A stretch of 30,035 bases of DNA from a virus. The stretch covers positions 1 to 30,035 of IMG/VR virus record IMGVR_UViG_3300032267_000079; one strand, given 5' to 3'. The notes under the pieces are model-generated. The model was not told the origin of the DNA, did no database searches, and saw only the letters and a list, made by a program, of their open reading frames with translations. Both the position numbers and the translations under genes were made by a program. Position 1 is the stretch's first letter. Each line of letters opens with the position of its first letter. Shown one piece after another: positions 854-13,398 of this stretch.

Positions 854-2407
854 ATGAAACCATATAGTTATAGTGAGTTCAACAATAGGTTTAATATGTT
901 TGGTTGGTTACATCCTGACATACGACAAACCTATTGGACTAAAGAAGATAATCAATGGGACTATCAAGAACAGGCAACTGTTCGTAAGACCTTTACATTA
1001 TCTACACTTTGGTACAAAGATACAAGAGTATTACAATTCTATACCAATGACGAAGGCAATGGCAGCAGACGATTAAGTGTATATAATTTCTATCGTGAAG
1101 CTGCTCATGAAACAGACCTTGTAACAAGTGCAAGTTATAGAATCAATGCATCAACTGTTATTGATGCGTTGTATTACAAAGCTAATGCACCTGTGTTCTA
1201 TAATCAAAATGGTACATTAAAGAAAGGGTTCTGGGGTGCTTTGCGTAGACGACTACGCTCACAAGCTATGCGTACTAGTTGGGTAACTAACCTTATGTTA
1301 CAAGAAGCAGTAAGAATAGCAGAGTCAACTACAAGTGACATAACTATTCAAGACTATCTTGTTGATAAAGACATACCAACTTATGCATACTATCAAGATG
1401 AGTTAACAACTGAATATCATGTTGATGGTAATCAACGACGCATACGACTTGGTTCTACTAGTTGGACTGAAATACATAAGTCTACTGATCCAAGGTTATA
1501 TGGGTATACATTCAATGAACGACATGACATATGGCTCAAGCCTGAGCAATTCTTTCATGGTGGTGAGATATATAATCGTAATGAAGTAGATATTGCTACA
1601 TGTTCTTCATGTGGTAATGAATCTGTTACGGAACTTATGATTGATGGTGTGTGTCATCATTGTCTTGATGCCACATTTAAAATACATAACTATTCAACAC
1701 GAGTAGAAAGTATGCTCAAGTTCAAAGCTACTAGGGTTAGACCTAATACTGTTTACCTTGGCTGTGAATTAGAATACGAAACTAACAATCGTAATCGTGC
1801 ACAACTTGCAGTAGGTAAACTAATGCATGGTCATGCACTTATGAAGTCTGATGGTTCTATTCGTAACGGCTTTGAAATTGTTACATGTCCAGCTACATTA
1901 GATATACATCTAGATATCTTTAAGAAATTCTATGACAACATACCACCTGATCTTAAGATAGAAAAGAATGTAGGTATGCATGTTCACATCAGTCGGAAAC
2001 CCTTGTCGCAGTTGACTCTTGGCAAGATGACTGAGTTTCTTAATCGTCCAGAAAATAAACTATTCATTGCATTTATAGCAGGTCGTACAGATAATCAATA
2101 TGCTCGTATGGATAGTGGACGCAATGTTACATATGCATGGCGTAACAAGAATGGTGGTGACAGATACAATGCACTCAATCTAAACAATCAGAACACAGTA
2201 GAAGTTAGGTTGTTTGCTACACCAATGAACTACAAAGAGTTTGCATCTCGCTTACAATTTGTACAAGCATTAGTTGACTATTGTATGCCTGCTCAGTCTA
2301 ATGAATCCCTCAAGAAACAAACTCATTACGAAGCATTCATGGGTTGGTTATCTAATCGTAAGCGTATGTTCCCCGAACTTAGTTATCATTTAAAGGAGTT
2401 TGTATAA
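854..2407 (+). CDS. Amidoligase family protein (GS fold) with zinc ribbon
   Basis: A 517-residue protein whose C-terminal half matches the Amidoligase_2 family, a glutamine-synthetase-fold COOH-NH2 ligase predicted to form amide or peptide bonds with ATP. Visible motifs in order: a zinc ribbon with Cys250, Cys253, Cys267 and Cys270; YLGCELEYE (301-309), which supplies acidic metal ligands; KSDGSI (331-336) and FEIVTCP (340-346); GMHVHISR (374-381); and RYNALNL...EVRLF (437-454). The first 240 residues are not recognised and look like a lineage-specific region. The next gene starts on its stop codon (TAATG), and a GATase and an ATP-grasp ligase follow, so the three probably form one biosynthetic or modification pathway. 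The substrate is unknown. The family call is strong; the chemistry is inferred from the family. Confidence 0.8.
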   Translation: MKPYSYSEFNNRFNMFGWLHPDIRQTYWTKEDNQWDYQEQATVRKTFTLSTLWYKDTRVLQFYTNDEGNGSRRLSVYNFYREAAHETDLVTSASYRINASTVIDALYYKANAPVFYNQNGTLKKGFWGALRRRLRSQAMRTSWVTNLMLQEAVRIAESTTSDITIQDYLVDKDIPTYAYYQDELTTEYHVDGNQRRIRLGSTSWTEIHKSTDPRLYGYTFNERHDIWLKPEQFFHGGEIYNRNEVDIATCSSCGNESVTELMIDGVCHHCLDATFKIHNYSTRVESMLKFKATRVRPNTVYLGCELEYETNNRNRAQLAVGKLMHGHALMKSDGSIRNGFEIVTCPATLDIHLDIFKKFYDNIPPDLKIEKNVGMHVHISRKPLSQLTLGKMTEFLNRPENKLFIAFIAGRTDNQYARMDSGRNVTYAWRNKNGGDRYNALNLNNQNTVEVRLFATPMNYKEFASRLQFVQALVDYCMPAQSNESLKKQTHYEAFMGWLSNRKRMFPELSYHLKEFV

Positions 2408-3324
2408 TGTGTATTGCAATCTATAAACCAGAAGAAAAGATTATCAGTAAAGCAACATTACAAGAATGTTATTCATCTAACCCAGATGGTGCAGGCTTTA
2501 TGTTTGCTGATAACAAACAATTAAATATTGAGAAAGGTTTCTTTAGCTTTGATTCCTTTTACAATGCATACAAGAAACATCAAGATAAAAAAGTTGTTAT
2601 TCATTTTAGGATTAAAACTCATGGTGAAATTAATAAAACAAACTGTCACCCATTCGCTGTCAATAGCAGTCTGGCTTTTGTGCACAACGGTATTATTAAT
2701 GGGCTTGATGGTGATAAGACTTTGTCTGACACTATCCACTTCAATGAACAAATACTTCAACCGTTAGTAAACAAATGGGGTAACTTAGCTTTATTCCAAG
2801 ATCCTATGATTAACCTTCTTGAAACTCGTATTGGTTATAGCAAGCTTATCTTCTTAGATAGACATGGTAACCATAAGATTATGAATGAACACAAGGGTGA
2901 ATGGGATGATGGCATATGGTATAGTAACAACAGTTACAAACCTTATGTCCCACCAGTTACAACATCATGGCTTAATGATACATACAACTATGGCAACTGG
3001 CGTAAACCTGTAGCTATTACTAAACCTAAACCTAAAGTAGTAGCAATAGGTGCAATGGTAGAATTACTAGAAGATGTAGCAGATCCTGGTACTCTTACAG
3101 TGTATGAGACTGGTGAACTATGTGAGATAGTTGCAGTTAATAAAGACTTTACATGTGATCTAATGCATGATGGTTACAATGGTAAAAGTTCTTTTCTTTA
3201 TAATGTTCCTTATCATTCTTTATCTTTTATAGATGAGTTTGAAGATGACTCTATTGATCCAGTAGGTATCCCTGCATATCAACAATATGCATCACCATCT
3301 TTATTGAAAGGTAAATCTAAATGA
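2407..3324 (+). CDS. Class II glutamine amidotransferase
   Basis: A 305-residue protein with an Ntn-hydrolase glutaminase domain (GATase type 2). After removal of Met1, Cys2 (MCIAIYKP) becomes the N-terminal nucleophile that releases ammonia from glutamine. Family motifs are HFRIKTHG (66-73), NCHPF (79-83), FVHNGIING (91-99) and SDT (107-109). The region after about residue 195 is not recognised. It lacks the synthetase domain found in large amidotransferases, so it presumably passes ammonia to a partner, and the flanking amidoligase and ATP-grasp genes are the obvious candidates. Its start overlaps the amidoligase stop by one base, and its stop overlaps the next start as ATGA. The glutaminase domain is confident; the acceptor is inferred. 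Confidence 0.8.
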   Translation: MCIAIYKPEEKIISKATLQECYSSNPDGAGFMFADNKQLNIEKGFFSFDSFYNAYKKHQDKKVVIHFRIKTHGEINKTNCHPFAVNSSLAFVHNGIINGLDGDKTLSDTIHFNEQILQPLVNKWGNLALFQDPMINLLETRIGYSKLIFLDRHGNHKIMNEHKGEWDDGIWYSNNSYKPYVPPVTTSWLNDTYNYGNWRKPVAITKPKPKVVAIGAMVELLEDVADPGTLTVYETGELCEIVAVNKDFTCDLMHDGYNGKSSFLYNVPYHSLSFIDEFEDDSIDPVGIPAYQQYASPSLLKGKSK

Positions 3325-4070
3325 GTCTTAAGATATTTCCTTACAAGTTAGGTAGTGTGTCTGCTAAACGATTGGCTAGAACCCTTGGTACTCTAAGGGT
3401 TTCACCATCGTATAATGCTAGACGCAAAGATGTAATAGTTAACTGGGGTAACTCTGCACCACCACACTTTAGGTGGATGGAGCAAGACTTAAACAATCCG
3501 CATGCCATCTCATTAGCTAGTAACAAACTTAATACATTCTTAGAGTTTCGTAACAAATCTTTTACTGATGTACCAGACTGGACTACTAACCCTAACGAAG
3601 CTCAACACTGGCTTGACTTAGGGCTTAAAGTATATTGTCGTACAACAACTAGAGGACACAGTGGTAATGGTATAGTTATATGTAGTGATGGTGATAGACT
3701 TGCGTATGCACCACTATATACATTACATAGTAAACATAAGCACGAGTATCGTGTCCATGTATTCCGTGGACAAGTACTCGATGTTCAAATGAAGCGTAAG
3801 CGTAATGGTGCCGGGGGCGGCACAGGTATTCGTAACCATGCAAATGGATGGGTGTATGCACGGGCAGAAATCGCCCCGTCCGAAGAACTACTATCATCAG
3901 CCTGCAAGGCTGTGAAATTATTAGGGTTAGATTTTGGTGCGGTGGACATCGGACACAGAGTCATTGATAATAAATTCTTTGTATTCGAAGTTAATACTGC
4001 CCCAGGATTAGAAGGAACAACGCTTGACAAGTATTCAAAAGCCATTTATAATTACTATAGGAGTCTATAA
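3321..4070 (+). CDS. ATP-grasp ligase (RimK-like)
   Basis: A 249-residue protein with an ATP-grasp fold of the RimK/COOH-NH2 ligase type, which activates a carboxylate as an acyl-phosphate and joins it to an amine. Recognisable elements are HEYRVHVFRGQVLDVQMKRK (141-160), the glycine-rich NGAGGGTG (162-169), DFGAVDIG (204-211), and FEVNTAPGLEGTT (222-234), where Glu223 and Asn225 are in the usual Mg-ATP binding position. Its ATG overlaps the GATase stop by four bases, showing tight coupling in the amidoligase-GATase-ligase triad. Comparable phage triads have been predicted to modify peptides, cell wall or proteins; nothing here identifies the substrate. Confidence 0.78.
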   Translation: MSLKIFPYKLGSVSAKRLARTLGTLRVSPSYNARRKDVIVNWGNSAPPHFRWMEQDLNNPHAISLASNKLNTFLEFRNKSFTDVPDWTTNPNEAQHWLDLGLKVYCRTTTRGHSGNGIVICSDGDRLAYAPLYTLHSKHKHEYRVHVFRGQVLDVQMKRKRNGAGGGTGIRNHANGWVYARAEIAPSEELLSSACKAVKLLGLDFGAVDIGHRVIDNKFFVFEVNTAPGLEGTTLDKYSKAIYNYYRSL

Positions 4071-4072
4071 TT

Positions 4073-4399
4073 ATGTCAGTAGAAATTGGTAATTTCGTAT
4101 CATTCTTTGGTATTGAAGATAACTTTCAACATGTAACACTTAAAGACATTGATCGCTTTGTTGATGACGCTTCTTGGTATGAAGTAGAAGATGTGGGTGA
4201 TACTTGGCTAGATGTTAGAGCAAGAGATGGTGTTAGAACTATCCATGTTGATGAAGCTTATGACGAATATCAAGTGTTTACTAAAGAAGGTCTTAGAGAG
4301 CATTTAAAAGAAATGCTTACTAATAACAATCATGCTGCAGTAATTGCTAAAATTAGACAACTATATCGTAAACAAGAGTTTCAATTTAAAGGAGTATAA
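4073..4399 (+). CDS. Hypothetical protein after the ligase triad
   Basis: A 108-residue acidic protein (MSVEIGNFVSFFGIEDN...), starting three bases after the ATP-grasp gene with AGGAG about ten bases upstream. It has two parts: residues 1-70 look beta-rich (SWYEVEDVGDTWLDVRARDG resembles a small SH3-like barrel strand pattern), and residues 71-108 look helical and basic. No domain is recognised with confidence. Its place in the operon makes it a candidate accessory or target protein of the amidoligase system, which is inference only. Confidence 0.7.
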   Translation: MSVEIGNFVSFFGIEDNFQHVTLKDIDRFVDDASWYEVEDVGDTWLDVRARDGVRTIHVDEAYDEYQVFTKEGLREHLKEMLTNNNHAAVIAKIRQLYRKQEFQFKGV

Positions 4400-4401
4400 C
4401 G

Positions 4402-4623
4402 GTGAGATGTTTAGCTTGTAACAAAGCGTTAAATGATTTCGAAGCTACACGCAAGTCGGCAACGACTGGCACATATGTAGACTTATGTAATCATTGTTTT
4501 CATGATGTTGAGTATGACATTGAGTCTCTCGAACGAGAAGACTTAAGGGAAACTAACGATGTCGAAGACGAGATAGAACTTGATGACTTACAGGGAGATT
4601 TATTTAATGGTGTCGCGGAATAA
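4402..4623 (+). CDS. Small zinc-ribbon protein
   Basis: A 73-residue protein with a probable GTG start at 4402, supported by AAAGGAG (4388-4394) seven bases upstream. Two CxxC pairs (CLAC at residues 3-6 and CNHC at 29-32) make a zinc ribbon resembling the small zinc-finger proteins common in T7-like phages. The C-terminal half is very acidic (residues 35-70), typical of a protein that contacts a partner or mimics nucleic acid. Specific function not recognised. Confidence 0.65.
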   Translation: MRCLACNKALNDFEATRKSATTGTYVDLCNHCFHDVEYDIESLEREDLRETNDVEDEIELDDLQGDLFNGVAE

Positions 4624-4843
4624 TATTACAGGTGATAGGCTTATTAATAAAAGACTATCTAAAGAAGGTGAAGATAATTGGGATCGTATCTTTAAAAAAC
4701 AAGGCATTACTTTAACTGAAGAAGAGTTAGCTAATGTAGAAATTATTGCTGATATTGTACAACATCATCATGATAAAAAACAATTAGCTGAGTATGAACT
4801 TGACAAGTCCACGGGTGAAGTGATTAAGAATTATAAGCCGTAG
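4607..4843 (+). CDS. Hypothetical small protein
   Basis: A 78-residue protein starting MVSRNNITGD. The frame is open further upstream with TTG and ATG options at 4580 and 4583, but ATG 4607 has AGGGAG (4592-4597) at a normal distance, so that start was chosen. It overlaps the preceding gene by 17 bases. The product is charged and helical with a hydrophilic C-terminus (HHHDKKQLAEYELDKS). No family is recognised. The TAG stop is the foot of a GC-rich hairpin, which marks the end of this rightward gene group. Confidence 0.6.
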   Translation: MVSRNNITGDRLINKRLSKEGEDNWDRIFKKQGITLTEEELANVEIIADIVQHHHDKKQLAEYELDKSTGEVIKNYKP

Positions 4844-4876
4844 AACGCAGGGCATCCCACACGGGTGCCTGCATTC
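4843..4876. other. GC-rich intergenic hairpin, second copy of shared arm
   Basis: GAACGCAGGGCATCCC (4843-4858) pairs with GGGTGCCTGCATTC (4863-4876) around an ACAC loop, with two one-base bulges. The right arm GGTGCCTGCATTC is identical to 807-819. The stem starts at the last base of the upstream stop codon (TAG), as in the first copy. It lies between convergent transcripts (the 4607-4843 gene and pqqA on the minus strand), so it may define 3' ends for both. Neither strand has a T-run, so it is not a textbook intrinsic terminator. Confidence 0.6.
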
Positions 4877-4881
4877 ATACG

Positions 4882-4908
4882 GTATGTAATTACTTATTCA
4901 TTACATAC
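4882..4908. other. Inverted repeat across the pqqA stop
   Basis: GTATGTAAT (4882-4890) and ATTACATAC (4900-4908) form a perfect 9-bp inverted repeat with a 9-base loop. It spans the last codons and the stop of pqqA on the minus strand, and sits just downstream of that gene's reading direction next to the GC-rich hairpin 4843-4876. It may protect the 3' end of the short pqqA mRNA or be a protein site; no T-run follows. Confidence 0.5.
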
Positions 4909-4961
4909 ATTGTAACTTCAAAACCGAAACGCATTTCTGTAGCAGCTGGTTTAGTCCACAT
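4890..4961 (-). CDS. pqqA: PqqA, coenzyme PQQ precursor peptide
   Basis: A complete 23-residue ORF in the gap between two rightward gene groups. It begins MWTKP and contains RFGFEVTMY at residues 11-19, ending in an Asn-Lys pair. This matches the PqqA family closely: the classical Klebsiella-type peptide is also 23 residues with Glu15 and Tyr19, and here both fall at exactly those positions in E-V-T-M-Y. In known pathways the radical-SAM enzyme PqqE, with PqqD, cross-links this Glu and Tyr; proteolysis and PqqB/PqqC then yield pyrroloquinoline quinone. No other pqq gene is in the window, so the peptide would depend on host enzymes. AAAGGA (4974-4969) precedes the ATG by seven bases, and an extended -10 promoter and a 5' stem-loop lie upstream. 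The host is inferred to use PQQ dehydrogenases, for example for methanol oxidation. Confidence 0.88.
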
Positions 4962-4985
4962 GATATTTTCCTTTATGAAAGTTAA

Positions 4986-5005
4986 TATAGAATTTTCATT
5001 CTATA
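4986..5005 (-). promoter_or_regulatory. 5' stem-loop of the pqqA transcript (GAAA loop)
   Basis: A perfect 8-bp inverted repeat (4986-4993 with 4998-5005) with a four-base loop. Read on the minus strand the stem is TATAGAAT/ATTCTATA and the loop is GAAA, a GNRA tetraloop. From the -10 box at 5016-5011, transcription should start near 5004, so the mRNA would begin almost exactly with this hairpin. Such 5'-terminal stem-loops are known to stabilise bacterial mRNAs. It could instead be an operator, since it also lies upstream of the primase gene. Confidence 0.55.
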
Positions 5006-5010
5006 CAACT

Positions 5011-5039
5011 ATTATAACATAATGAATGAAAACAATCAT
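5011..5039 (-). promoter_or_regulatory. Extended -10 sigma70 promoter for pqqA
   Basis: On the minus strand the sequence reads TGTTATAAT: a consensus -10 (TATAAT, 5016-5011) preceded by TGn, the extended -10 element. A weak -35 (ATGATT, 5039-5034) with the TGA core lies 17 bases upstream. The predicted start is about 43 bases before the pqqA ATG. This promoter points away from the replication genes and serves only pqqA. Confidence 0.6.
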
Positions 5040-5072
5040 GCGTGTAACTCTTAACTTAATCTAAGGATATTC

Positions 5073-5765
5073 ATGAGTAAATTTATCGGTCATATACCTT
5101 GTCCAAGTTGTGGTAGCAAAGATAACTTGGCAGAATATGACGATCATTTGTTTTGTTTTGGATGTAAATATTGGAAGTCTAAGAACACAATCGAAGGAGT
5201 TCGCAGAAGATTGCTGACAATCGACGAAGAATGTCCCAATGATTTAAACTTAGATTTAGTACTTGACATTCCTAAAGAAGCAATGCAATGGCTTTTACAA
5301 TATGAAATAACAAGTAAAGATTGTGAGACTTATCACATTACTTGGTGTCCGTCAAGGAAAGCTTTAGTACTTGTGTACCTACCACACTATTACCAAGCTA
5401 GAAACTTTAACGAAGGACCTAAGTACTTGTCTAAAGGAAACAAACCCTTGCTATTCTATGGTAACAGTGATACAATAGTTATAGTAGAAGACGTTTTATC
5501 TGCCATAAAAGTTAGTAAAAGTAACAATAGTTACACAGGGTGTCCTCTACTAGGTTCAAGTATGCCTCTAAAACTTACAGAAACCATCCTAGAACGCTTT
5601 AAAAAGGTTTGGGTATGGTTGGATAGGGATAAAGCAATTGATGCCGTTAAAATGGCTAGAAATTTAAAACAGAAGGGTATTGATGCTGATGTTATTATTA
5701 CAGATAAAGATCCTAAAGAGTATAGCACACACGATATAGACTTGATTATAAAGGATAAACAATGA
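5073..5765 (+). CDS. DNA primase (T7 gp4 N-terminal type)
   Basis: A 230-residue primase that makes RNA primers for lagging-strand synthesis. A zinc-binding domain uses Cys10, Cys13, Cys28 and Cys31 (PCPSCG...FCFGC), as in T7 gp4 and related primases that read template trinucleotides. A TOPRIM domain follows, with VIVEDVLSAIKV (Glu139), VWVWLDRDKA (Asp184/Asp186) and TDKDPKEYS (Asp211/Asp213) as metal-binding residues. In T7 the primase is fused to the helicase; here it ends after TOPRIM and the helicase is a separate gene. ATG 5073 has AAGGA six bases upstream. Confidence 0.87.
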   Translation: MSKFIGHIPCPSCGSKDNLAEYDDHLFCFGCKYWKSKNTIEGVRRRLLTIDEECPNDLNLDLVLDIPKEAMQWLLQYEITSKDCETYHITWCPSRKALVLVYLPHYYQARNFNEGPKYLSKGNKPLLFYGNSDTIVIVEDVLSAIKVSKSNNSYTGCPLLGSSMPLKLTETILERFKKVWVWLDRDKAIDAVKMARNLKQKGIDADVIITDKDPKEYSTHDIDLIIKDKQ

Positions 5766-5992
5766 AACAACCTGACGCTTGGCTGTATGAAGAGTATGAT
5801 ACTACTGGAGCACTCCGTGCTAAATACCTTTGGTCATTCCTTCCTGCAGATTTACAACAGATTACCAGACTCAAAGACGTGCATCACTTTGTGCTCACGC
5901 CTTTGTATCTGGATGTGAATGAAAGAAAAGTTTACAATAAAGAAAATAAATACAACAGTAAGAAATTAACAGAAGCTTTTTGTGGTCTGTAG
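5762..5992 (+). CDS. Hypothetical protein between primase and helicase
   Basis: A 76-residue protein (MKQPDAWLYEEYDTTGALRA...), with ATG overlapping the primase stop (ATGA) and AAAGGA upstream. Aromatic-rich and without a recognised family. Its position between the two halves of a replicative primase-helicase suggests it is cotranscribed with them; a linker or adaptor role is possible but not shown. Confidence 0.68.
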   Translation: MKQPDAWLYEEYDTTGALRAKYLWSFLPADLQQITRLKDVHHFVLTPLYLDVNERKVYNKENKYNSKKLTEAFCGL

Positions 5993-6003
5993 AAAGGAGT
6001 TAC

Positions 6004-7245
6004 ATGGTAGAGAAACAAATCATTAAATTGTTTTGTGAAGACGTAAATCTCTTTACAAAGTATTACAAGTATGTTAACATTAATTATATAAAGATTAATT
6101 ATAATGATATATATAAATTATTTAATATAGTATCATTATACTATAGTAAATATAATACTAGTACTACTATTACTAATAATGAATTAGAGATATTCTATAA
6201 TAGTAATTACTTATTACGTGATCAAGAAAGAAAAGAACTTAGTGTTCTTTTAGAAGACATCTTTAATCAAGATACTACTAACAAGGGTATCATTGTCTCA
6301 TTACTAGAAGAACATCGTAGACGCTCACTAGCAGGACAAGTAGCTATGATGGCATTAGATGTAGAAGGGGGTAAGAAATCTACTGAAGATCTTCTTAATT
6401 TATTTAATGAGTTTGAACATCAAGAGGTTGAGTCTGATGACATTAAACCTGTTGATATGGATTTGGAAAACTTATATGACACACAGATTTCAACTCCTGG
6501 TTTACGCTGGCGTCTTGATTGGCTTAATAAGTCTCTTGGATCTTTGCGTAAAGGTGATTTTGGTTTTATCTTTGCTCGCCCCGAGACAGGCAAGACTACG
6601 TTTCTTGCGAGTGAAATTACGCACATGGTGGGTCAAACTACTGGTGATGTACTATGGTTTAATAATGAAGAACAAGGAAAGAAAGTTGGCATTAGAGTAT
6701 ACCAAGCAGCCCTTGGATTACCATTAAGTGAGTTGTTTAAAGACAAAGTTATGAGTAAAATACAATACAATGAACTAACAGGTAATCGTATTCATATCTT
6801 AGACTTTGAAGATTCAAGTAGCAAAGCAAGAATAGAAGCAGTACTTAAACAATATAACCCAGCTCTTATTATCTTTGACCAGATAGATAAGATCCGTGGT
6901 TTTAAAGGAGAAAGAAATGATCTTGAACTTAAGCAGATTTATCAATGGGCTAGAGAGATTGCTAAAACATACGCACCTGTCATCGCTGTATCGCAAGCAT
7001 CAGGCGAAGCGGAAGGCAAGCTATTTCTAACAATGGATCAAGTCGACGGCTCCAAAACGGCTAAGCAGGGCGAAGCCGATTGGATCCTAGGGATAGGTAA
7101 AGAACAAGATAACCTTAGTCGTAGTAGATATTTTAATATCTGCAAGAATAAACTAGTAGGTGACACTGACACCTTACCTGATCTAAGACATGGTTCTAAA
7201 CAAGTATTAATTAAAGCAGACATTGCAAGATACATTGACATTTAA
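6004..7245 (+). CDS. Replicative DNA helicase, DnaB/T7 gp4 C-terminal type
   Basis: A 413-residue helicase of the DnaB superfamily that unwinds DNA at the fork. The ATG at 6004 follows AAAGGAG (5993-5999) at a normal distance; an upstream in-frame ATG at 5980 lacks such a site and was not used. The N-terminal domain (1-140) is Asn/Ile/Tyr-rich and encoded by an extremely AT-rich stretch. The RecA-like domain (about 165-413) shows Walker A ARPETGKTTF (191-200), WFNNEEQGKKV (218-228) with the catalytic Glu, Walker B ALIIFDQID (287-295), and a C-terminal CKNKLVGDTDTLPDLRHG segment resembling the DNA-binding/arginine-finger region of T7 gp4. It follows the primase, of which it is the physically separate partner. 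Confidence 0.88.
   Translation: MVEKQIIKLFCEDVNLFTKYYKYVNINYIKINYNDIYKLFNIVSLYYSKYNTSTTITNNELEIFYNSNYLLRDQERKELSVLLEDIFNQDTTNKGIIVSLLEEHRRRSLAGQVAMMALDVEGGKKSTEDLLNLFNEFEHQEVESDDIKPVDMDLENLYDTQISTPGLRWRLDWLNKSLGSLRKGDFGFIFARPETGKTTFLASEITHMVGQTTGDVLWFNNEEQGKKVGIRVYQAALGLPLSELFKDKVMSKIQYNELTGNRIHILDFEDSSSKARIEAVLKQYNPALIIFDQIDKIRGFKGERNDLELKQIYQWAREIAKTYAPVIAVSQASGEAEGKLFLTMDQVDGSKTAKQGEADWILGIGKEQDNLSRSRYFNICKNKLVGDTDTLPDLRHGSKQVLIKADIARYIDI
6061..6190. other. Extremely AT-rich tract inside the helicase gene
   Basis: About 130 bases are nearly all A and T (for example 6081-6130), encoding Asn, Ile, Tyr and Lys in the helicase N-terminal domain. The bias is far stronger than in the flanking coding sequence. 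It may be a DNA-unwinding element near a replication origin, or simply a low-constraint protein segment. No clustered DnaA-type or iteron repeats were recognised. Confidence 0.4.
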
Positions 7246-7263
7246 ATTAAAGGAGTATCTATT

Positions 7264-7422
7264 TTGAATAATGATTTTACAGAAGTTTTAAAAGCTAGAC
7301 CTGACTTGAACAGAGCAGACATTTATGATATAATAGATCTAATGGGTCCTAATGAAACCCTTCTTGAAGCAGTAAATAAATACTACCCACTCAACCAAGG
7401 AACTGGCGATTGCGCAGCTTAA
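7264..7422 (+). CDS. Small hypothetical protein, TTG start
   Basis: A 52-residue protein read from TTG 7264, with AAAGGAG (7249-7255) eight bases upstream and no ATG at a suitable place. It begins MNNDFTEVLKARPDLNRADI and looks helical and acidic, like a small helix bundle. It fills the gap between helicase and polymerase and overlaps the polymerase start by 13 bases, consistent with translational coupling. No family recognised. Confidence 0.6.
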   Translation: MNNDFTEVLKARPDLNRADIYDIIDLMGPNETLLEAVNKYYPLNQGTGDCAA

Positions 7423-8579
7423 TCTTAGATGTTGAAACAACCATAAGCAACAAGGGCAATCCATTTGATGAAAGGAATAAACTTTGTTATGTTGGACTCT
7501 ATAGTACTGATGGCACTTATTTATACGACATTGATTATAGCGGAAGTCCTAACAGAGAAAGACTTGACGCTATACAAAGAAGCATCGACAGCCACGATAC
7601 TCTTGTTGGCTTTAACATTAAGTTTGACTTGCATTGGTTAAGACGCTATGGAATTAATTTTATGGATAAGCGTATTTGGGATTGTCAGTTGGCTCATTTT
7701 ATACTTACGGGCCAACAATATCCCTATCCAAGTCTCAATGGTGTTGCTGACTACTATGCTTTGGGTAGTAAACTTGATATCATTGCTACTGATTATTGGA
7801 AGAATGGGATAGATACTGACAAGATACCTAAAGACTTGTTAGAAGAATACCTCACACAAGATTTGCAGTTAACGCAAAAAGTGTATGAGAAACAGATGGA
7901 AGAATTTGCAGTTGGCACAAAACAAATGCAAAGACTTCTTAGCTTACATAACCAAGACTTATTAATATTAGAGGAGATGGAATACAATGGTCTTAAATTT
8001 AATGAAACAGAGTGTGTTAGGCTTGGGGAAGAAACTACAAAAGATATTGAACGTATTGATTCAATCCTTTATACTTATCATAAGCTTCCTGAGTTTAATG
8101 CTAATAGCACTGAACATATTAGTGCTCTTCTCTATGGGGGATCTATTAAAGTCAGACGTCAAGAAGTTATTGGTACTTTTAAAACAGGGACTAGAGCGGG
8201 CTTACCTAAAAGCCAATGGAAAGAATACGTCATAGAGTTTGAACGTTTGGCTAATCCTCTTAAAGGTTCTGAACTAGAAAAAGAAGGTTACTTCTCTAAT
8301 GATGAACAGACATTACGATCATTAAAAGGTAGTAAACAAGCTAAAGAATTAATAGAACTTATCTTAGCTAGGGCTACATTAGAGAAACGATTATCTGCAT
8401 ACTATGAAGGATTGGTAGTACTACGCAAGACTATGAACTGGAAAGAAGGTACACTACACGGTGTTCTTAATCAATGTGTTGCTAAGACAGGAAGACTATC
8501 GTCTACTAAACCTAACTTACAGAACTTTGATGGAGAAATTAAACAACTATTTGGGAGTAGGTATGCTGTTACAAGCTGA
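7410..8579 (+). CDS. Family A DNA polymerase, N-terminal part (3'-5' exonuclease and start of polymerase domain)
   Basis: A 389-residue protein holding the proofreading exonuclease and thumb/early palm of a T7-like family A polymerase. ExoI is LILDVETT (Asp7, Glu9), ExoII GFNIKFDLHW (Asn69, Asp73) and ExoIII EEYLTQDLQL (Tyr147, Asp151). Near the C-terminus, KTGRLSSTKPNLQNF matches the conserved TGR/PNLQN segment just before motif A. The ORF then stops at TGA 8577-8579, and motif A lies in the +1 frame in the next ORF. The start is TTG 7410 with AAGGAA eight bases upstream; no ATG is available before ExoI. This is either a true two-subunit polymerase, a +1 frameshift, or an indel. Confidence 0.85.
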   Translation: MRSLILDVETTISNKGNPFDERNKLCYVGLYSTDGTYLYDIDYSGSPNRERLDAIQRSIDSHDTLVGFNIKFDLHWLRRYGINFMDKRIWDCQLAHFILTGQQYPYPSLNGVADYYALGSKLDIIATDYWKNGIDTDKIPKDLLEEYLTQDLQLTQKVYEKQMEEFAVGTKQMQRLLSLHNQDLLILEEMEYNGLKFNETECVRLGEETTKDIERIDSILYTYHKLPEFNANSTEHISALLYGGSIKVRRQEVIGTFKTGTRAGLPKSQWKEYVIEFERLANPLKGSELEKEGYFSNDEQTLRSLKGSKQAKELIELILARATLEKRLSAYYEGLVVLRKTMNWKEGTLHGVLNQCVAKTGRLSSTKPNLQNFDGEIKQLFGSRYAVTS

Positions 8580-9282
8580 TGCTAAAGCACTAGAATGGGT
8601 ATGTGCAGCTTATCTATCACAAGATCAAACTGCTATTAAGGAGATATGGGATGGGACAGATCAGCACACGGATAATCAGGTTAGGTTCGGTTTACCTTCT
8701 CGTCTCATTGCTAAGACATTTGTATTCAGACTCATCTATGGTGGCAGTGCTTATAGTTATGCTAATGATCCTAACTTTACTGATACCAGTAAACAAGAAA
8801 CATTCTGGCAGAACATCATTGATGAGTTCTATAAAAAGTATAGTGGACTTGATGCCTGGCACAAAGAGATTGTTGAGAAAGCTAAAAGAGATAGAAAAAT
8901 AACTATGCCTACAGGGAGGGTATATCATTATGAACCAGAAATAAGATATGGTAAAGCTAAATGGCCCCGCACACGAATCCTTAACTATCCAGTGCAAGGA
9001 CTCGGTGCTGATTTGATGGCTATAGCAAGAGTTAGTCTAGCTAATAGACTAAAGAAAGTGGAAGGAACTAAGTTAATAAACACTGTTCATGATTCGATTA
9101 TAGTTGACTTTGATGAGAAACTATGCGATAATAATAGTATAGTTAAGTTAGTAGATGATTGTTTTACGGACATCCCTCTTAACTTTAAAAAGTTATTTGG
9201 GGTTGAATTTAATCTTCCTATGAGGGTCGAATGTCAAGTTGGATCTAATTGGGGTAACATGGAGATAGTAAATGCTAATTAA
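8563..9282 (+). CDS. Family A DNA polymerase, C-terminal catalytic part
   Basis: A 239-residue palm/fingers fragment that supplies all catalytic residues. Motif A is QADAKALEW (Asp6). The O-helix is R-x3-K-x7-YG (Arg47, Lys51, Tyr59-Gly60) with Phe55 at the position equivalent to E. coli Pol I 762. Motif C is NTVHDSIIVDF (His176, Asp177). The frame is open from 8461, but ATG 8563 has GGGAG five bases upstream and starts just before motif A. It overlaps the N-terminal ORF by 17 bases in the +1 frame. Together the parts total about 628 residues with no conserved segment missing, close to a compact T7-like polymerase. It cannot work without the N-terminal part or a frameshift joining them. Confidence 0.85.
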   Translation: MLLQADAKALEWVCAAYLSQDQTAIKEIWDGTDQHTDNQVRFGLPSRLIAKTFVFRLIYGGSAYSYANDPNFTDTSKQETFWQNIIDEFYKKYSGLDAWHKEIVEKAKRDRKITMPTGRVYHYEPEIRYGKAKWPRTRILNYPVQGLGADLMAIARVSLANRLKKVEGTKLINTVHDSIIVDFDEKLCDNNSIVKLVDDCFTDIPLNFKKLFGVEFNLPMRVECQVGSNWGNMEIVNAN

Positions 9283-9799
9283 TATTGTTGATGTTGGAAC
9301 ACCTAGTACTAAAGCTTCATCTAATGGTAGATCTTACCAAGAGATTGAAATAACTTACAAGACTGAAAATGGTCAAGTAGCTAATAAAAAGCTTATGTCT
9401 TTTAGTAACCCATCGGTATTTAATCATATCAAAGGTTTAGCTAAAGGTGAGGTTGTTAATGTAACGACTGTTAAAAATGCCAAAGGGTTTTGGGATTGGA
9501 CAGGTATTGGTAATGAAGGAGATGCACCAGTGGCTACACAAAGTAAACCAGCAACTGCGCAAGCAGGTGGTAGAGTAACAGGAAGTAACTATGAAACTAA
9601 AGAAGAAAGAGCTGCACGACAAGTGTTTATTATTCGTCAGTCATCTCTATCAACTGCAGTAGAGTTACTAGGACAAGGTAAATCTGTTGATGAAGTTATT
9701 GCAACAGCTAAACAATTCGAAGCTTATGTATTTAGTAAAGATCCAAACCCTACTAAAGAAGTAAACTTTGATGATTTAGAGGATGACATCCCAGTCTAA
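9272..9799 (+). CDS. Single-stranded DNA-binding protein
   Basis: A 175-residue protein with the layout of a phage SSB: a beta-rich OB-like N-terminal region (residues 1-75, with alternating polar/hydrophobic strands and the aromatic FWDWTGIG at 69-76), a flexible linker rich in Ala, Thr and Gln, and an acidic C-terminal tail (FDDLEDDIPV) of the kind that recruits polymerase and helicase. It overlaps the polymerase gene by 11 bases and the exonuclease gene by one, firmly in the replication operon. The call rests on layout and context rather than a diagnostic motif. Confidence 0.7.
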   Translation: MLINIVDVGTPSTKASSNGRSYQEIEITYKTENGQVANKKLMSFSNPSVFNHIKGLAKGEVVNVTTVKNAKGFWDWTGIGNEGDAPVATQSKPATAQAGGRVTGSNYETKEERAARQVFIIRQSSLSTAVELLGQGKSVDEVIATAKQFEAYVFSKDPNPTKEVNFDDLEDDIPV

Positions 9800-10473
9800 T
9801 GAAAGCACTTATTGATGCTGATATAGTAGCGTATAGGGTTGCTTGTACGCTACAAGATGATGATGCTCAGGACTTTGCGTATGCTAGGACAGAAGATCTA
9901 GTTGATCATATCCTAGTTAGTACGGAAGCTTCTGAGTATAATCTTTATTTAACGGGTAAAGATAACTTTAGGTATAGTATATACCCTGAGTATAAAGCCC
10001 ACCGTCCTAAAGAGAAACCATTCTGGTTAGAACCTATTCGTCAATATCTTATTGCAACATTCAATGCAGAAGTTATTGATGGTATGGAAGCTGACGATGC
10101 ACTTGGGTTAAATCAAACAGATGATACTGTTATTTGTTCTATAGATAAAGATCTTCTTATGATTCCTGGTAAACATTTTAACTTTGTTAAGAATGAATTC
10201 TGTGAGGTTAATGAGTTTGAAGGACTTAAACACTTCTATAAGCAATGTCTTATGGGTGATAGGTCTGATAACATTAAAGGCATAGAAAAGATTGGTACTA
10301 AGAAAGCAGATAAAATCTTAGCTGAATGTGAAACAGAACAACATTTGTTTGACGCAGTTAGGAATGCTTATAGTAACGATGAAGAGTTTAAAATGAATGC
10401 TCAGGTTCTTTGGATTAGACAAAAAGGAAAGGAAAACTGGTTAGATGCTTATATCAAACTGTGTACAGAATAA
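9799..10473 (+). CDS. 5'-3' exonuclease (FEN / T7 gp6-like)
   Basis: A 224-residue flap-endonuclease/5'-exonuclease. Metal-binding acids are in family order: LIDADI (Asp6, Asp8), EYKAHRP (64-70), GMEADDALG (Glu97, Asp99, Asp100), CSIDKDLLMIPG (Asp116, Asp118) and LMGDRSDNIKGIEKIGTKKA (Asp154, Asp157 then the helix-hairpin-helix that grips DNA). In T7-like phages this enzyme removes RNA primers and degrades host DNA for nucleotide recycling. It starts on the SSB stop codon. Confidence 0.88.
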   Translation: MKALIDADIVAYRVACTLQDDDAQDFAYARTEDLVDHILVSTEASEYNLYLTGKDNFRYSIYPEYKAHRPKEKPFWLEPIRQYLIATFNAEVIDGMEADDALGLNQTDDTVICSIDKDLLMIPGKHFNFVKNEFCEVNEFEGLKHFYKQCLMGDRSDNIKGIEKIGTKKADKILAECETEQHLFDAVRNAYSNDEEFKMNAQVLWIRQKGKENWLDAYIKLCTE

Positions 10474-10639
10474 AGACGGGTCATTAGACTTTGAGTTTCA
10501 TGTAGACCCTAAAGAGGCTGCCTTCTTAATGGACTATGCTATCAAAGAACTGGTGCGTAGAGGTGTCTTTGAAGTTGCAACAGATGCCGTTGAACAAGAG
10601 TTAGATTTATTCAAACAAGAAGGTGGTCAAATCAATTGA
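10445..10639 (+). CDS. Small hypothetical protein
   Basis: A 64-residue acidic protein (MLISNCVQNKDGSLDFEFHV...), overlapping the exonuclease by 29 bases. The only ATG in frame is at 10445, and its Shine-Dalgarno sequence (GGAAAGGA near 10425-10432) is more distant than usual. The sequence KEAAFLMDYAIKELVRRGVFEV suggests one amphipathic helix pair. Such small proteins are common between phage replication genes; no function recognised. Confidence 0.62.
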   Translation: MLISNCVQNKDGSLDFEFHVDPKEAAFLMDYAIKELVRRGVFEVATDAVEQELDLFKQEGGQIN

Positions 10640-10689
10640 TCATCCTTCTTTGGGTAGCTCTAATGATTTTAATTTATGAAGGAGAGTAG
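10636..10689 (+). CDS. Possible 17-residue hydrophobic micro-ORF
   Basis: A TTG at 10636 overlapping the previous stop (TTGA) opens a frame encoding a purely hydrophobic peptide (IILLWVALMILIY flanked by a short polar end). It ends at TAG 10687-10689, just before the next ATG. AGGTGG lies nine bases upstream. It could be a membrane micropeptide or just a leader ORF giving translational coupling; chance is also possible at this length. Confidence 0.22.
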   Translation: MIILLWVALMILIYEGE

Positions 10690-10690
10690 C

Positions 10691-10894
10691 ATGAGTAACG
10701 GAAACTCACCAGCATTCCCGTGTCAAGATAACAAGAAACAAATTTATACTGGTATGAACCTTAGGGATTACATAGCTATGGAAGCATTACATGCATTCAT
10801 TGATTCTAATTGGTCAGATGATCCTATAGAATTAGCTAAACAAGCTTATAAGGTTTCAAACGCAATGCTTGACGAACGTGTTAAGTATCCGTAA
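10691..10894 (+). CDS. Conserved small phage protein, unknown function
   Basis: A 67-residue protein starting MSNGNSPAFP. ATG 10691 is chosen because AAGGAG (10679-10684) is six bases upstream; the upstream in-frame ATG at 10676 overlaps that site. It has the pattern of a widespread phage small protein: FP near the N-terminus, GMNLRDYIAMEAL in the middle and AYKVSNAMLDER near the end. I recognise the pattern but no function has been assigned that I know of. Confidence 0.72.
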   Translation: MSNGNSPAFPCQDNKKQIYTGMNLRDYIAMEALHAFIDSNWSDDPIELAKQAYKVSNAMLDERVKYP

Positions 10895-10921
10895 TTACTA
10901 CTATCATCACTTGGAGTCCTC

Positions 10922-11248
10922 ATGAAAAAACTATTGTTAGTTATTGGGTTATGTTTAAGTACAAGTGCAATTGCTGAAGCTTATAAATATTTACATTACA
11001 GATATAATCAAAATGTAATTATAACCATTTCAAATATTGATTGTGTTTTACCTGAACTTAAAAGTTTATACCCTTTAACTGCAGTAGCTACTAGGATTGA
11101 CGGTAACCGTCTTCTAGCATGTTATACTCACGAGGGTGAAGATGTTGTAATACAATGGTACAAAGGTGATACAAGCAGATTCCCTGCTAATGTCTTTCTT
11201 ACTAATCCTAAGATAGATGATACTTATAAAAAAGAACCTACACTATAA
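10922..11248 (+). CDS. Small exported protein with signal peptide
   Basis: A 108-residue protein with a clear signal peptide: MKK, a hydrophobic core (residues 4-13) and a likely cleavage site after Ala18 (SAIA/EA). The mature domain of about 90 residues is beta-like with two cysteines (Cys41, Cys67) that could form a disulphide in the periplasm. A phage protein secreted to the periplasm could act in superinfection exclusion, receptor masking or lysis control; the sequence does not decide. GGAG precedes the ATG and the next gene starts on its stop. Confidence 0.7.
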   Translation: MKKLLLVIGLCLSTSAIAEAYKYLHYRYNQNVIITISNIDCVLPELKSLYPLTAVATRIDGNRLLACYTHEGEDVVIQWYKGDTSRFPANVFLTNPKIDDTYKKEPTL

Positions 11249-11631
11249 TGGAGTGGACTGATGGCAGAATCAAAGGATTTATTACGTCCGTGTTGCGGGG
11301 AGGGTACAGACGTTGGCCTCCTAAATACGAAACGCTCAAAGAAGCACAAACTGGTAAAAAGATTAACGAACTTACTAAGCGCATGGGTATGCACTACAAA
11401 TGCAAGTCTTGTAAAAACGAGTACCCTGCTAAACAAGTTCAAGTTGATCATATCAAACCAGTGGTTGATGCTAAGGTTGGGTTTACATCTTGGGACGAAT
11501 TCATTGAAAGACTTTATTGTACCAAAGATAATTTGCAAGTGCTCTGTAAAAACTGCCACGACAAGAAAACTCTAAAAGAAAAGAAACAAAGAGTAATAAC
11601 AAGTAAAAATAATAAGATAGAACTTTATTAA
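11248..11631 (+). CDS. HNH endonuclease
   Basis: A 127-residue HNH nuclease. Zinc-binding cysteines Cys52/Cys55 (CKSC) and Cys100/Cys103 (CKNC) frame the beta-beta-alpha metal site with Asp67-His68 (QVDHIKP), Asn95 (DNLQVLC) and His104 (NCHDKKT). It begins on the stop codon of the exported protein (TAATG). A WPPKYETLKEA segment at 23-33 is shared by T7-group HNH proteins. It could be a homing nuclease or a Holliday/debranching-type nuclease; its location in the replication operon without interrupted genes argues for a normal phage function. Confidence 0.82.
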   Translation: MEWTDGRIKGFITSVLRGGYRRWPPKYETLKEAQTGKKINELTKRMGMHYKCKSCKNEYPAKQVQVDHIKPVVDAKVGFTSWDEFIERLYCTKDNLQVLCKNCHDKKTLKEKKQRVITSKNNKIELY

Positions 11632-11643
11632 TAAAGGAAATAT

Positions 11644-12213
11644 ATGAGTAATACAGTACAAGAATTAGATAAAGTATATTTTATAAAAAAAGCTGTGTCA
11701 GAAGGTTTTTGTAATAATATTATTAAAGAATATTCTAAACCAGAAAATAAAAAAGAATTACCATTTATTGGTGAAGGTAGAGATCCTGTTAAAAATATTG
11801 ACCTTAACATTCGTAATGTATTAAGACTTCCATTACCTATGAACCAAGGTATAGGTGCTACGCTTACTTCATGTGCTTTAAATATAAATCATGCTTATTG
11901 GAAATTTGATGTAACACATTCTAATCAAACAGAGTTTCTTATGTATGATGTTAATGGTTTGTATGCAGCTCATGTTGATACAATTCATATGCATAGTAAT
12001 ACAACAAGAAAACTTACTGCAATAGCAATTCTTAATGATGACTTTGAAGGCGGTAAATTTTATATAATGGATGGTGATGATAAGATATATCCATCTCAAG
12101 AAAAAGGTGATATAATTGTATTTCCTTCTTTTATAACACATGGTGTAGAACCAGTAATAAAAGGAATGAGATATACGGTAGTAACATGGATGGTAGGTCC
12201 ATACTTTAAATAG
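11644..12213 (+). CDS. 2-oxoglutarate/Fe(II) dioxygenase (prolyl-hydroxylase-like)
   Basis: A 189-residue double-stranded beta-helix oxygenase. Iron ligands are His110, Asp112 (AAHVDTIH) and His166 (FITHGVEP), and Arg176 (MRYTVV) sits where 2-oxoglutarate is held. LTAIAILNDDFEGGKFYI and KGDIIVFPS are typical of prolyl-4-hydroxylase-like members found in many aquatic phages. The substrate may be a protein, nucleobase or sugar; unknown. ATG follows AAAGGAAATAT. It lies between the HNH nuclease and a DnaQ-like exonuclease, hinting at nucleic-acid work, which is inference. Confidence 0.8.
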   Translation: MSNTVQELDKVYFIKKAVSEGFCNNIIKEYSKPENKKELPFIGEGRDPVKNIDLNIRNVLRLPLPMNQGIGATLTSCALNINHAYWKFDVTHSNQTEFLMYDVNGLYAAHVDTIHMHSNTTRKLTAIAILNDDFEGGKFYIMDGDDKIYPSQEKGDIIVFPSFITHGVEPVIKGMRYTVVTWMVGPYFK

Positions 12214-12221
12214 GAGATAAG

Positions 12222-12968
12222 ATGAGTAAAATACTTTTATTAGATATTGAAATGGCACCAAACGTAGCCCATGTATGGGGTATCTGGGATCAGAACATTG
12301 GTATCAATCAATTGCAAGAGAGTTCATATGTCATGTGCTACGCAGCTAAATGGCTTGGTAGTAAAGAAATGATGTTCCAGTCTGTAAAAAAGTCTGGTGA
12401 AAAGAAAATGCTAGAGGGTATACACAAGCTTCTTGATGAAGCTGATGCAGTTATACACTACAATGGTAAACGTTTTGATATCCCTTCTCTTAATAAAGAA
12501 TTCTTATTACATGGTATGTTCCCACCAGCACCTTTTAAAGAGATTGATTTATTAACTGTAGCTAGAGGTAGGTTTAGATTTGTATCTAACAAGCTAGACT
12601 ATGTAGCACAGCAACTAGGGTTAGGTAAAAAGACTGCACACAGTGGTCATGAACTATGGGTACAATGTATGGCAGGTATCCCTAAAGCTTGGAAGACTAT
12701 GGAAGAGTATAACAAGAACGATGTTATTCTTTTAGAAAAAGTCTATGAACGTTTTAAACCTTGGATTAAAAACCACCTTAACCGTAACCTTATTGAAAAC
12801 AATGGACTATGTTGTCCTACTTGTACTTCTAAATCTTTCCAGAAAAGAGGGTATAACCTTACTTCTACAGGCAAATACCAAAGATATCAATGCCGTACGT
12901 GTGGTAACTGGTTTAGAGATGGTACTAACCTTAAAGAAAAAGGTTCTATAAAGCTTGTAAATGTTTAA
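12222..12968 (+). CDS. DnaQ/RNase H-like 3'-5' exonuclease with C-terminal zinc ribbon
   Basis: A 248-residue protein in two parts. Residues 1-180 form a DEDD exonuclease of the YprB-like RNase_H_2 kind: LLLDIEMAP (Asp8, Glu10), HYNGKRFDIPSL (Asn81, Asp86) and EEYNKNDVILLEKVYERF (Tyr163, Asp167). Residues 195-235 form a zinc ribbon with Cys198, Cys201, Cys224 and Cys227 (CPTC...YQCRTCGNWF), similar to the DNA-binding ribbon seen in IS1-type InsA proteins. It is a second exonuclease in addition to the one in the polymerase. The ribbon probably targets it to a nucleic acid structure. Confidence 0.8.
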   Translation: MSKILLLDIEMAPNVAHVWGIWDQNIGINQLQESSYVMCYAAKWLGSKEMMFQSVKKSGEKKMLEGIHKLLDEADAVIHYNGKRFDIPSLNKEFLLHGMFPPAPFKEIDLLTVARGRFRFVSNKLDYVAQQLGLGKKTAHSGHELWVQCMAGIPKAWKTMEEYNKNDVILLEKVYERFKPWIKNHLNRNLIENNGLCCPTCTSKSFQKRGYNLTSTGKYQRYQCRTCGNWFRDGTNLKEKGSIKLVNV

Positions 12969-12983
12969 AAAAGATGGTATAAT
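12955..12983 (+). promoter_or_regulatory. Sigma70 promoter predicted to give a leaderless mRNA
   Basis: TTGTAA (12955-12960) and consensus TATAAT (12978-12983) are separated by exactly 17 bases. The expected start point, six to seven bases after the -10, falls on or next to the A of the ATG at 12990. No Shine-Dalgarno sequence precedes that ATG. It would drive the DUF3310-RNR group separately from the upstream operon, read by host RNA polymerase. Confidence 0.6.
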
Positions 12984-12989
12984 AATAAT

Positions 12990-13214
12990 ATGACTAAATT
13001 TCCAGAACTAAAAAAAGCTATAACTAAACAAGTGGCAGGTACACATTACACTAAGTATGCAATCCAACCTGTTGAGTTTATTACTAAAAACAATATCCCT
13101 TATATTGAGGGTAATATTATTAAATACATCTGCCGTTGGCGTGATAAAGGTGGAGTGGAAGACTTAGACAAAGTTATCCATTATGTAGAACTATTAAAAG
13201 AATTGAAATCATAA
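12990..13214 (+). CDS. DUF3310 family protein (nucleotide-kinase-like small protein)
   Basis: A 74-residue protein with the DUF3310 pattern: AGTHYTKYAIQPVEFI, then EGNIIKYICRWRDKGGVEDLDKVIHYVELL. These small phage proteins are often annotated as nucleotide-kinase-like, with little direct evidence. The gene starts at a predicted transcription start, so it may be translated from a leaderless mRNA. It precedes a ribonucleotide reductase, in keeping with nucleotide metabolism. Confidence 0.82.
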   Translation: MTKFPELKKAITKQVAGTHYTKYAIQPVEFITKNNIPYIEGNIIKYICRWRDKGGVEDLDKVIHYVELLKELKS

Positions 13215-13215
13215 C

Positions 13216-13398
13216 ATGCAACTAACTTTAGAAGAGTTAAAAGAACGGCTTGCGGATAGACTGGATGAAATAACTCTTCTAGAGTTACTAAACATTACTT
13301 CTTACGATTTGGTAGAAAGGTTTTCAGATCTAATAGAAGATAACTACGATAAACTTCAGAAAGAAATTAACGATGACTACGAAACTGACGAACTATAG
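13216..13398 (+). CDS. Small acidic helical protein
   Basis: A 60-residue, highly acidic protein (MQLTLEELKERLADRLDEIT...), likely all-helical with heptad-like leucines. It starts two bases after the DUF3310 gene and overlaps the RNR gene by 26 bases. Similar short LTLEEL...LLELLNITSYDLVERF proteins occur in many phages; function unknown to me. Confidence 0.68.
   Translation: MQLTLEELKERLADRLDEITLLELLNITSYDLVERFSDLIEDNYDKLQKEINDDYETDEL

What the first reader, a model, noticed from the sequence alone, without database searches (positions are those of the whole stretch)
4890..4961. Phage-encoded PqqA: a 23-residue PQQ precursor gene hidden in an intergenic gap
The minus strand between two rightward gene groups encodes a full-length peptide with MWTKP at the start and GFEVTMY at 13-19. 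Glu15 and Tyr19, the two residues joined by PqqE to make PQQ, are at the exact positions of the classical 23-residue PqqA. Length, ends, Shine-Dalgarno site and promoter all fit. Ordinary gene callers miss 72-bp ORFs. It would act as an auxiliary metabolic gene that boosts PQQ supply for host quinoprotein dehydrogenases (for example methanol dehydrogenase) during infection. No pqqB-E genes are visible, so host enzymes would be used.
Basis: partly seen in the sequence, partly recalled or inferred. Interest (0 to 1): 0.95.

Follow-up and report, generated by a model that had tools for sequence, protein, structure and literature searches.

The report
Phage-borne pqqA cofactor-precursor gene
A tiny gene that database annotations of these phages overlook really is a copy of the bacterial gene for the peptide from which the cofactor PQQ is made, and unrelated phages that attack methanol-eating bacteria keep carrying it, which suggests that they top up the raw material their hosts need to burn methanol.

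Summary
Confirmed. Window 4890-4961 (minus) encodes [23 protein letters not shown], a genuine PqqA: Pfam 42.4 bits (cut-off 21.1), NCBIfam equivalog 40.4 (cut-off 20). It is letter-for-letter the PqqA of the Methylophilaceae. It is not isolated. The six distinct phage types isolated on Methylophilaceae that I know of (Venkman, P19250A, MEP301, MEP401, MEP402, Melnitz) carry the same gene, uncalled or buried under a wrong-strand 'hypothetical protein'. Their terminases and capsids are mutually unrelated, apart from the sister pair MEP401/402; Melnitz is T4-like. A capped IMG/VR scan gave at least 589 further stretches. In phages found through other genes, 28 of 46 records have it. Glu15 and Tyr19 never change (pN/pS 0.05-0.09). 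The gene sits at about four different sites within the window's own subfamily, always antiparallel to the replication genes. Nearest relatives infecting SAR11 or Vibrio lack it. No PqqE or methanol dehydrogenase accompanies it. Many copies form a compact unit: -10 box, leader hairpin of variable sequence, Shine-Dalgarno, ORF.

Best explanation: a substrate-type auxiliary gene that keeps the consumed precursor flowing to host PqqB-E during infection. The function is inferred. One viral PqqA (Lake Baikal, 2020) was reported before; the breadth, recurrent gain and leader structure appear new.

The parts
4890..4961 (-). pqqA ORF, 23 codons plus TAA
4905..4919 (-). codons 15-19 (Glu15-Val-Thr-Met-Tyr19), the residues PqqE crosslinks in known PqqA
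   Evidence: position in PF08042 match; Glu15 and Tyr19 invariant in 77 distinct viral sequences and in the 29 genes of the PqqA-independent sample
4969..4974 (-). Shine-Dalgarno AAAGGA, 7 nt before ATG
   Evidence: an SD is present in the relatives
4985..5006 (-). leader hairpin GTATAGAAT-GAAA-ATTCTATAT, 9 bp
5011..5019 (-). extended -10 promoter element TGTTATAAT
   Evidence: -10-like hexamer at 50-59 nt upstream at a rate of 0.55 per viral leader
4840..4882 (-). 3' stem-loop between pqqA and the convergent gene 4580-4843; terminator-like, weak U-tract
   Evidence: whole unit folds at z = -4.0
5073..5765 (+). DNA primase, start of the MEP401-type replication module that flanks pqqA
4402..4843 (+). 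two small genes upstream; MEP402 homologue of the first (gp10) directly abuts primase with no pqqA between

Best explanation
It is a genuine, functional pqqA gene carried by a phage (Zobellviridae-like, MEP401-type replication module) of a methylotrophic Methylophilaceae bacterium. After infection it is read from its own promoter as a short transcript with a 5' hairpin, and translated into the 23-residue precursor. Host PqqD/PqqE crosslink Glu15 to Tyr19, host protease and PqqB/PqqC finish PQQ, and PQQ loads host methanol dehydrogenase. The phage brings only this part of the pathway because PqqA is the one component consumed one-for-one, so it has to be kept supplied by translation, while the enzymes act catalytically and persist. 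Shown: identity, invariance of reactive residues, breadth, recurrent gain or relocation, absence of other pathway genes, recurring gene architecture. Inferred: expression, processing by host enzymes, benefit through methanol oxidation.
For: HMM identity. 100% identity to Methylophilaceae PqqA. Host family: 120 of 120 genomes have pqqA, 1-12 copies; published work says pqqA is multicopy while pqqBCDE is usually single copy (PMC4109929), as expected if substrate supply matters. Six isolated methylophage types carry it, and the annotated phage collection gave no other true phage carrier except the metagenomic genome ctXG6705 (two 'Acinetobacter phage' hits are chromosomal pqq operons). Carrier terminases and capsids unrelated by BLASTP. 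Nearest non-methylotroph relatives (HTVC010P-type and Hodr pelagiphages, Vibrio ICP2) lack it. Sample found by other genes: 28 of 46 records, pN/pS 0.09. About four insertion sites in one subfamily, all antiparallel to polA. No pqqE above cut-off or PQQ-alcohol dehydrogenase in 91 records. A paper cites conversion of added PqqA peptide to PQQ by cell extract at 70-80% (PMC9851590), so peptide supply alone can drive PQQ formation.
Against: No transcript, peptide or phenotype data. Some near-complete relatives lack any PqqA-like ORF (7 checked), so it is not essential to the lineage. Hosts already hold several pqqA copies, so the size of the benefit in one infection cycle is unclear. Host assignment of the window rests on its replication module, not on an isolate.
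Confidence: 0.82

Rival explanations
1. The peptide is a decoy that binds host PqqD/PqqE and shuts PQQ synthesis down, as host takeover or superinfection exclusion.
For: Phages often inhibit host pathways; no PqqE or PQQ-dehydrogenase gene is carried.
Against: A decoy would not need both crosslinked residues, yet Glu15 and Tyr19 are invariant in the viral copies, and the commonest peptide is identical to the host substrate.
Confidence: 0.07
2. The conserved element is a regulatory RNA (leader hairpin plus short transcript), the peptide being incidental.
For: Leader hairpin in 72 of 109 viral leaders against a mean of 21.9 in shuffles; whole-unit fold z -4.0.
Against: Synonymous positions vary freely while residues are held (pN/pS 0.05-0.09); stem sequences differ completely between phages (60 distinct stem-loops); no Rfam family.
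Confidence: 0.04
3. Passive hitch-hiking: host DNA picked up by transduction and not yet lost.
For: Peptide identical to host; sequence too short for a phylogeny.
Against: Recurs in unrelated phage lineages; 77 distinct nucleotide versions, high synonymous divergence, only 11 peptides; kept at different sites.
Confidence: 0.03
4. Genuine PqqA and PQQ supply, but benefit through another quinoprotein or through redox or antioxidant PQQ, not methanol dehydrogenase.
For: Gammaproteobacterial-type PqqA occurs in other viral contigs, up to 340 kb, whose hosts were not identified and may not be methylotrophs.
Against: Methylophilaceae depend on PQQ-dependent methanol dehydrogenases (xoxF/mxaF; PMC4109929); one Baikal methylophage pair carries methanol dehydrogenase as well as PqqA (PMC7678222).
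Confidence: 0.15

Closest known systems
PqqA, precursor peptide of pyrroloquinoline quinone (PF08042, TIGR02107)
   Same: Length, W2-T3-x-P5, R11, G13-F14-E15-V-T-x-Y19, over both curated cut-offs; identical to Methylophilaceae copies
   Different: Lies in a phage without pqqB-E
PqqA reported in Lake Baikal virus population VP_266 (PMC7678222)
   Same: A viral PqqA assigned to a Methylophilaceae-infecting virus, read as an auxiliary metabolic gene
   Different: That was one T4-like population with methanol dehydrogenase also encoded; here stand-alone in a MEP401-type phage, and shown to be part of a pattern across unrelated phages, including the isolates
Free-standing extra pqqA copies of Methylophilaceae (3-12 per genome, PMC4109929)
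   Same: Same peptide, many copies unlinked, some with hairpin leaders
   Different: Chromosomal; host leaders show a weaker excess of stems (24 of 115 against 12.5 expected)
MEP401/MEP402 and 'group II' metagenomic viral genomes (Zobellviridae, PMC10580990)
   Same: Homologous replication module and order
   Different: The window's structural genes have no MEP402 homologue, matching the paper's group II description; pqqA at a different site; that paper does not mention pqq genes

Membership tests
PqqA (TIGR02107 equivalog / PF08042) | Score above curated cut-offs | tested here: met
   40.4 vs 20 and 42.4 vs 21.1 bits
PqqA (TIGR02107 equivalog / PF08042) | Glu-x3-Tyr at the crosslinked positions | tested here: met
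   E15, Y19; invariant across viral copies
PqqA (TIGR02107 equivalog / PF08042) | Coding constraint | tested here: met
   pN/pS 0.047 (PqqA-ascertained set) and 0.09 (set found by other genes)
PqqA (TIGR02107 equivalog / PF08042) | Substrate of PqqE with PqqD, ending in PQQ | not testable with these tools
   needs biochemistry
PqqA (TIGR02107 equivalog / PF08042) | Linked pqqBCDE (usual but not defining; host copies are often unlinked) | tested here: not met
   no SPASM domain in the window; no PqqE above cut-off in 91 other carrier records
Phage auxiliary metabolic gene | Lies in a virus genome between virus genes, with a host homologue | tested here: met
   nine isolate records
Phage auxiliary metabolic gene | Expressed and alters host metabolism during infection | not testable with these tools
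   no transcriptome or infection data
Zobellviridae, MEP401-type subfamily | MEP401-type replication module | tested here: met
   primase, helicase, split polA, exonuclease and RNR 44-75% identical and in order
Zobellviridae, MEP401-type subfamily | Terminase/capsid phylogeny | not tested
   no terminase or capsid gene was identified in the 30 kb window

The most novel reading that the evidence does not exclude
Phages of PQQ-dependent bacteria have repeatedly acquired a substrate-type auxiliary gene (the consumed RiPP precursor rather than an enzyme) as a compact self-contained transcription unit with its own structured leader. It is near-universal in methylotroph phages of unrelated lineages and extends to other PQQ-making hosts, which would make PqqA supply a general bottleneck during infection.
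Probability: 0.5. Interest if true: 0.8.

Novelty: new member of a known kind. Interest (0 to 1): 0.68.

Why it matters
Every Methylophilaceae phage type isolated so far that I could examine carries a metabolic gene that its database record does not annotate. It points to PQQ precursor supply as a limiting step for cells living on methanol, and suggests that viruses can hold a pathway by its consumable substrate with 72 bases instead of by an enzyme. It also gives a marker for phages of methylotrophs, important in coastal and lake carbon cycling. It can be tested in isolated phage-host pairs (for example Venkman with H5P1, MEP401 with FZCC0133).

Tried and rejected
Acinetobacter phage MD-2021a hits (H11, H12) looked like non-methylotroph phage carriers; annotation shows a chromosomal pqqABCDE operon, so rejected. 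A Methylobacterium-type PqqA scan of viral contigs found nothing. Methanol dehydrogenase or PqqE as companions: none (the two PqqE-model hits, 27.7 and 26.4 bits against a cut-off of 381, are generic radical-SAM level). Rfam match for the leader: none beyond chance. MAFFT alignment of leaders was too shifted for a pair count, so stems were counted per sequence. Degenerate pqqA in 7 near-complete phages without a match: none found (of one record, G167, the last 2 kb was not read).

Full report
Observation. The minus strand of 4890-4961 encodes [23 protein letters not shown] followed by TAA. It scores 42.4 bits with Pfam PqqA (cut-off 21.1) and 40.4 bits with NCBIfam TIGR02107, an equivalog model (cut-off 20). 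The record has one such match and 14 control genomes have none. PHROGs has no family for it, which with its length of 72 bases helps to explain why it is overlooked. Shine-Dalgarno and an extended -10 are present; the simple promoter scan does not call a full sigma-70 site.

The phage. The 30,035-base record is an IMG/VR virus record with no end repeats, probably a fragment. From 854 to 15250 it matches the replication half of the OM43 phages MEP401/MEP402: amidoligase, glutamine amidotransferase, primase, helicase, split family-A polymerase, exonuclease, ribonucleotide reductase. The structural genes have no MEP402 homologue. That is what the describers of MEP401 call group II: MEP401-type replication, different morphogenesis, mostly predicted to infect OM43 (PMC10580990). 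The host is therefore probably a Methylophilaceae bacterium.

Breadth. Searching all 50,697 annotated phage records, the peptide is found in Venkman, P19250A, MEP301, MEP401, MEP402, four Melnitz isolates and one metagenomic genome, ctXG6705. PMC10580990 names Venkman, MEP301 and Melnitz as the only OM43 phages known before MEP401/402; P19250A is the freshwater LD28 phage. In most of these records nothing is annotated at the site; Melnitz and ctXG6705 have a hypothetical protein called on the opposite strand. I found no mention of pqq genes in the MEP401/402 and MEP301 papers or in the Venkman paper; the Melnitz paper mentions PQQ only as a medium component. Supplementary tables were not checked. 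Terminase and capsid proteins of MEP402, Venkman/ctXG6705, P19250A and MEP301 show no BLASTP similarity to one another; Melnitz is a T4-like myovirus. Two Acinetobacter records are chromosomal contamination.

Selection. In 88 viral loci there are 77 distinct nucleotide sequences but 11 peptides; Glu15, Tyr19 and eleven other residues never vary; pN/pS is 0.047. That set was picked by peptide patterns, which inflates conservation. A second set was found through polymerase or terminase genes instead: 28 of 46 records carry pqqA (16 of 20, 5 of 6 and 7 of 20 by group, many being fragments), with pN/pS 0.09 over 26 distinct sequences. Scores there are 36-41 bits with nothing between the cut-off and 36, so no decaying copies. 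Seven near-complete genomes have no PqqA-like ORF, so the gene is frequent, not obligatory.

Gain and position. In the MEP401-type group pqqA lies about 2.2-2.6 kb before polA (nine records including the window), 4.1 kb before it, 7.3-9.5 kb before it, or 7.4-8.7 kb after it; some of these placements (G166, G172, MEP402) assume a circular genome. It is always antiparallel to the replication module. Record G173 carries two copies at two of these sites. The MEP402 homologue of the window's gene 4402-4623 directly abuts primase without pqqA. Nearest relatives on other hosts (HTVC010P-type SAR11 phages at 48-50% terminase identity, Hodr at 42%, Vibrio ICP2 at 55%) lack it. A Manatee Spring genome, MW202697, with 75% terminase identity to MEP402, also gave no match. 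Repeated gain or relocation with retention speaks for function.

Gene architecture. In 72 of 109 distinct viral leaders a stem scoring at least 6 bp is found, against 21.9 on average (maximum 35) in shuffled leaders; the 3' arm mostly ends 19-24 nt before ATG, and the stem-loops are of 60 kinds. Leaders fold better than dinucleotide shuffles (mean z -1.52; control ORF leaders -0.23; host pqqA leaders -1.15), and -10-like hexamers peak 50-59 nt before ATG. The window's whole unit folds at z -4.0. The likely reading is a short, stabilised mRNA with its own promoter. Because stem sequences differ completely, a single protein operator is unlikely.

Host side. All 120 sampled genomes of the host family have pqqA, with 1-12 copies, and streamlined 1.3-Mb OM43 genomes mostly keep three. 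Lake Washington strains have 3-12 pqqA copies but mostly single pqqBCDE (PMC4109929). In one methylotroph strain the five copies are expressed very differently (PMC9851590). The substrate seems to be the amplified step in the host too.

Mechanism. The commonest viral peptide equals the host's, no PqqE or methanol dehydrogenase accompanies it (91 records), and the reactive residues are invariant. The simplest account is that phage PqqA feeds host PqqB-E and so sustains methanol oxidation after host messages decline. Expression, modification and benefit are inferred.

Wider. A scan with gammaproteobacterial-type PqqA gave 80 more viral loci with different peptides, in contigs up to 340 kb; the seven variants tested all pass TIGR02107, and again no PqqE or dehydrogenase is present in 50 records. 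A few of these, with K. pneumoniae-type peptides near contig ends, may be prophage borders. Hosts were not identified.

Known or new. One earlier report of a viral PqqA was found: Lake Baikal VP_266, T4-like, with methanol dehydrogenase (PMC7678222). The kind is therefore known; the breadth across lineages, the un-annotated copies in isolated methylophages, the repeated placement and the leader structure were not found described in the open-access library searched, which lacks most subscription journals.

Noticed in passing
L494-L573: Other PqqA types (e.g. [47 protein letters not shown]) in viral contigs up to 340 kb, without pqqE or PQQ-dehydrogenase.
   Followed up: partly
upstream of pqqA in viral loci, e.g. 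window 4985-5006: Leader hairpin at a fairly constant place with unrelated stem sequences in different phages; some host pqqA genes have one too. Role unknown (mRNA stability or regulation).
   Followed up: partly
record G173 (loci L471, L493): One 50.8 kb phage contig carries two pqqA genes at two of the sites used singly by relatives.
   Followed up: partly
window 7410-8579 and 8461-9282: Family-A DNA polymerase split over two overlapping ORFs, as in MEP402 gp13/gp15.
   Followed up: no
window 854-4070: Cluster of amidoligase, class-II glutamine amidotransferase and an ORF matching the phage 'ribosomal protein S6 glutaminyl transferase' family (phrog_2599); looks like a peptide or cell-wall modification module.
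   Followed up: no
phage records CAKLQF020000010, CAKLQH020000055: Records named Acinetobacter phage MD-2021a contain a chromosomal pqqABCDE operon; likely misfiled bacterial contigs.
   Followed up: yes
MW202481.1 2067-2195; MZ577097.1 76100-76195: Hypothetical proteins called on the strand opposite to pqqA are probably spurious.
   Followed up: partly
OM43 genomes (L104, L105, L108): Two pqqA genes about 200 bp apart, one a variant [23 protein letters not shown], in highly streamlined genomes.
   Followed up: no
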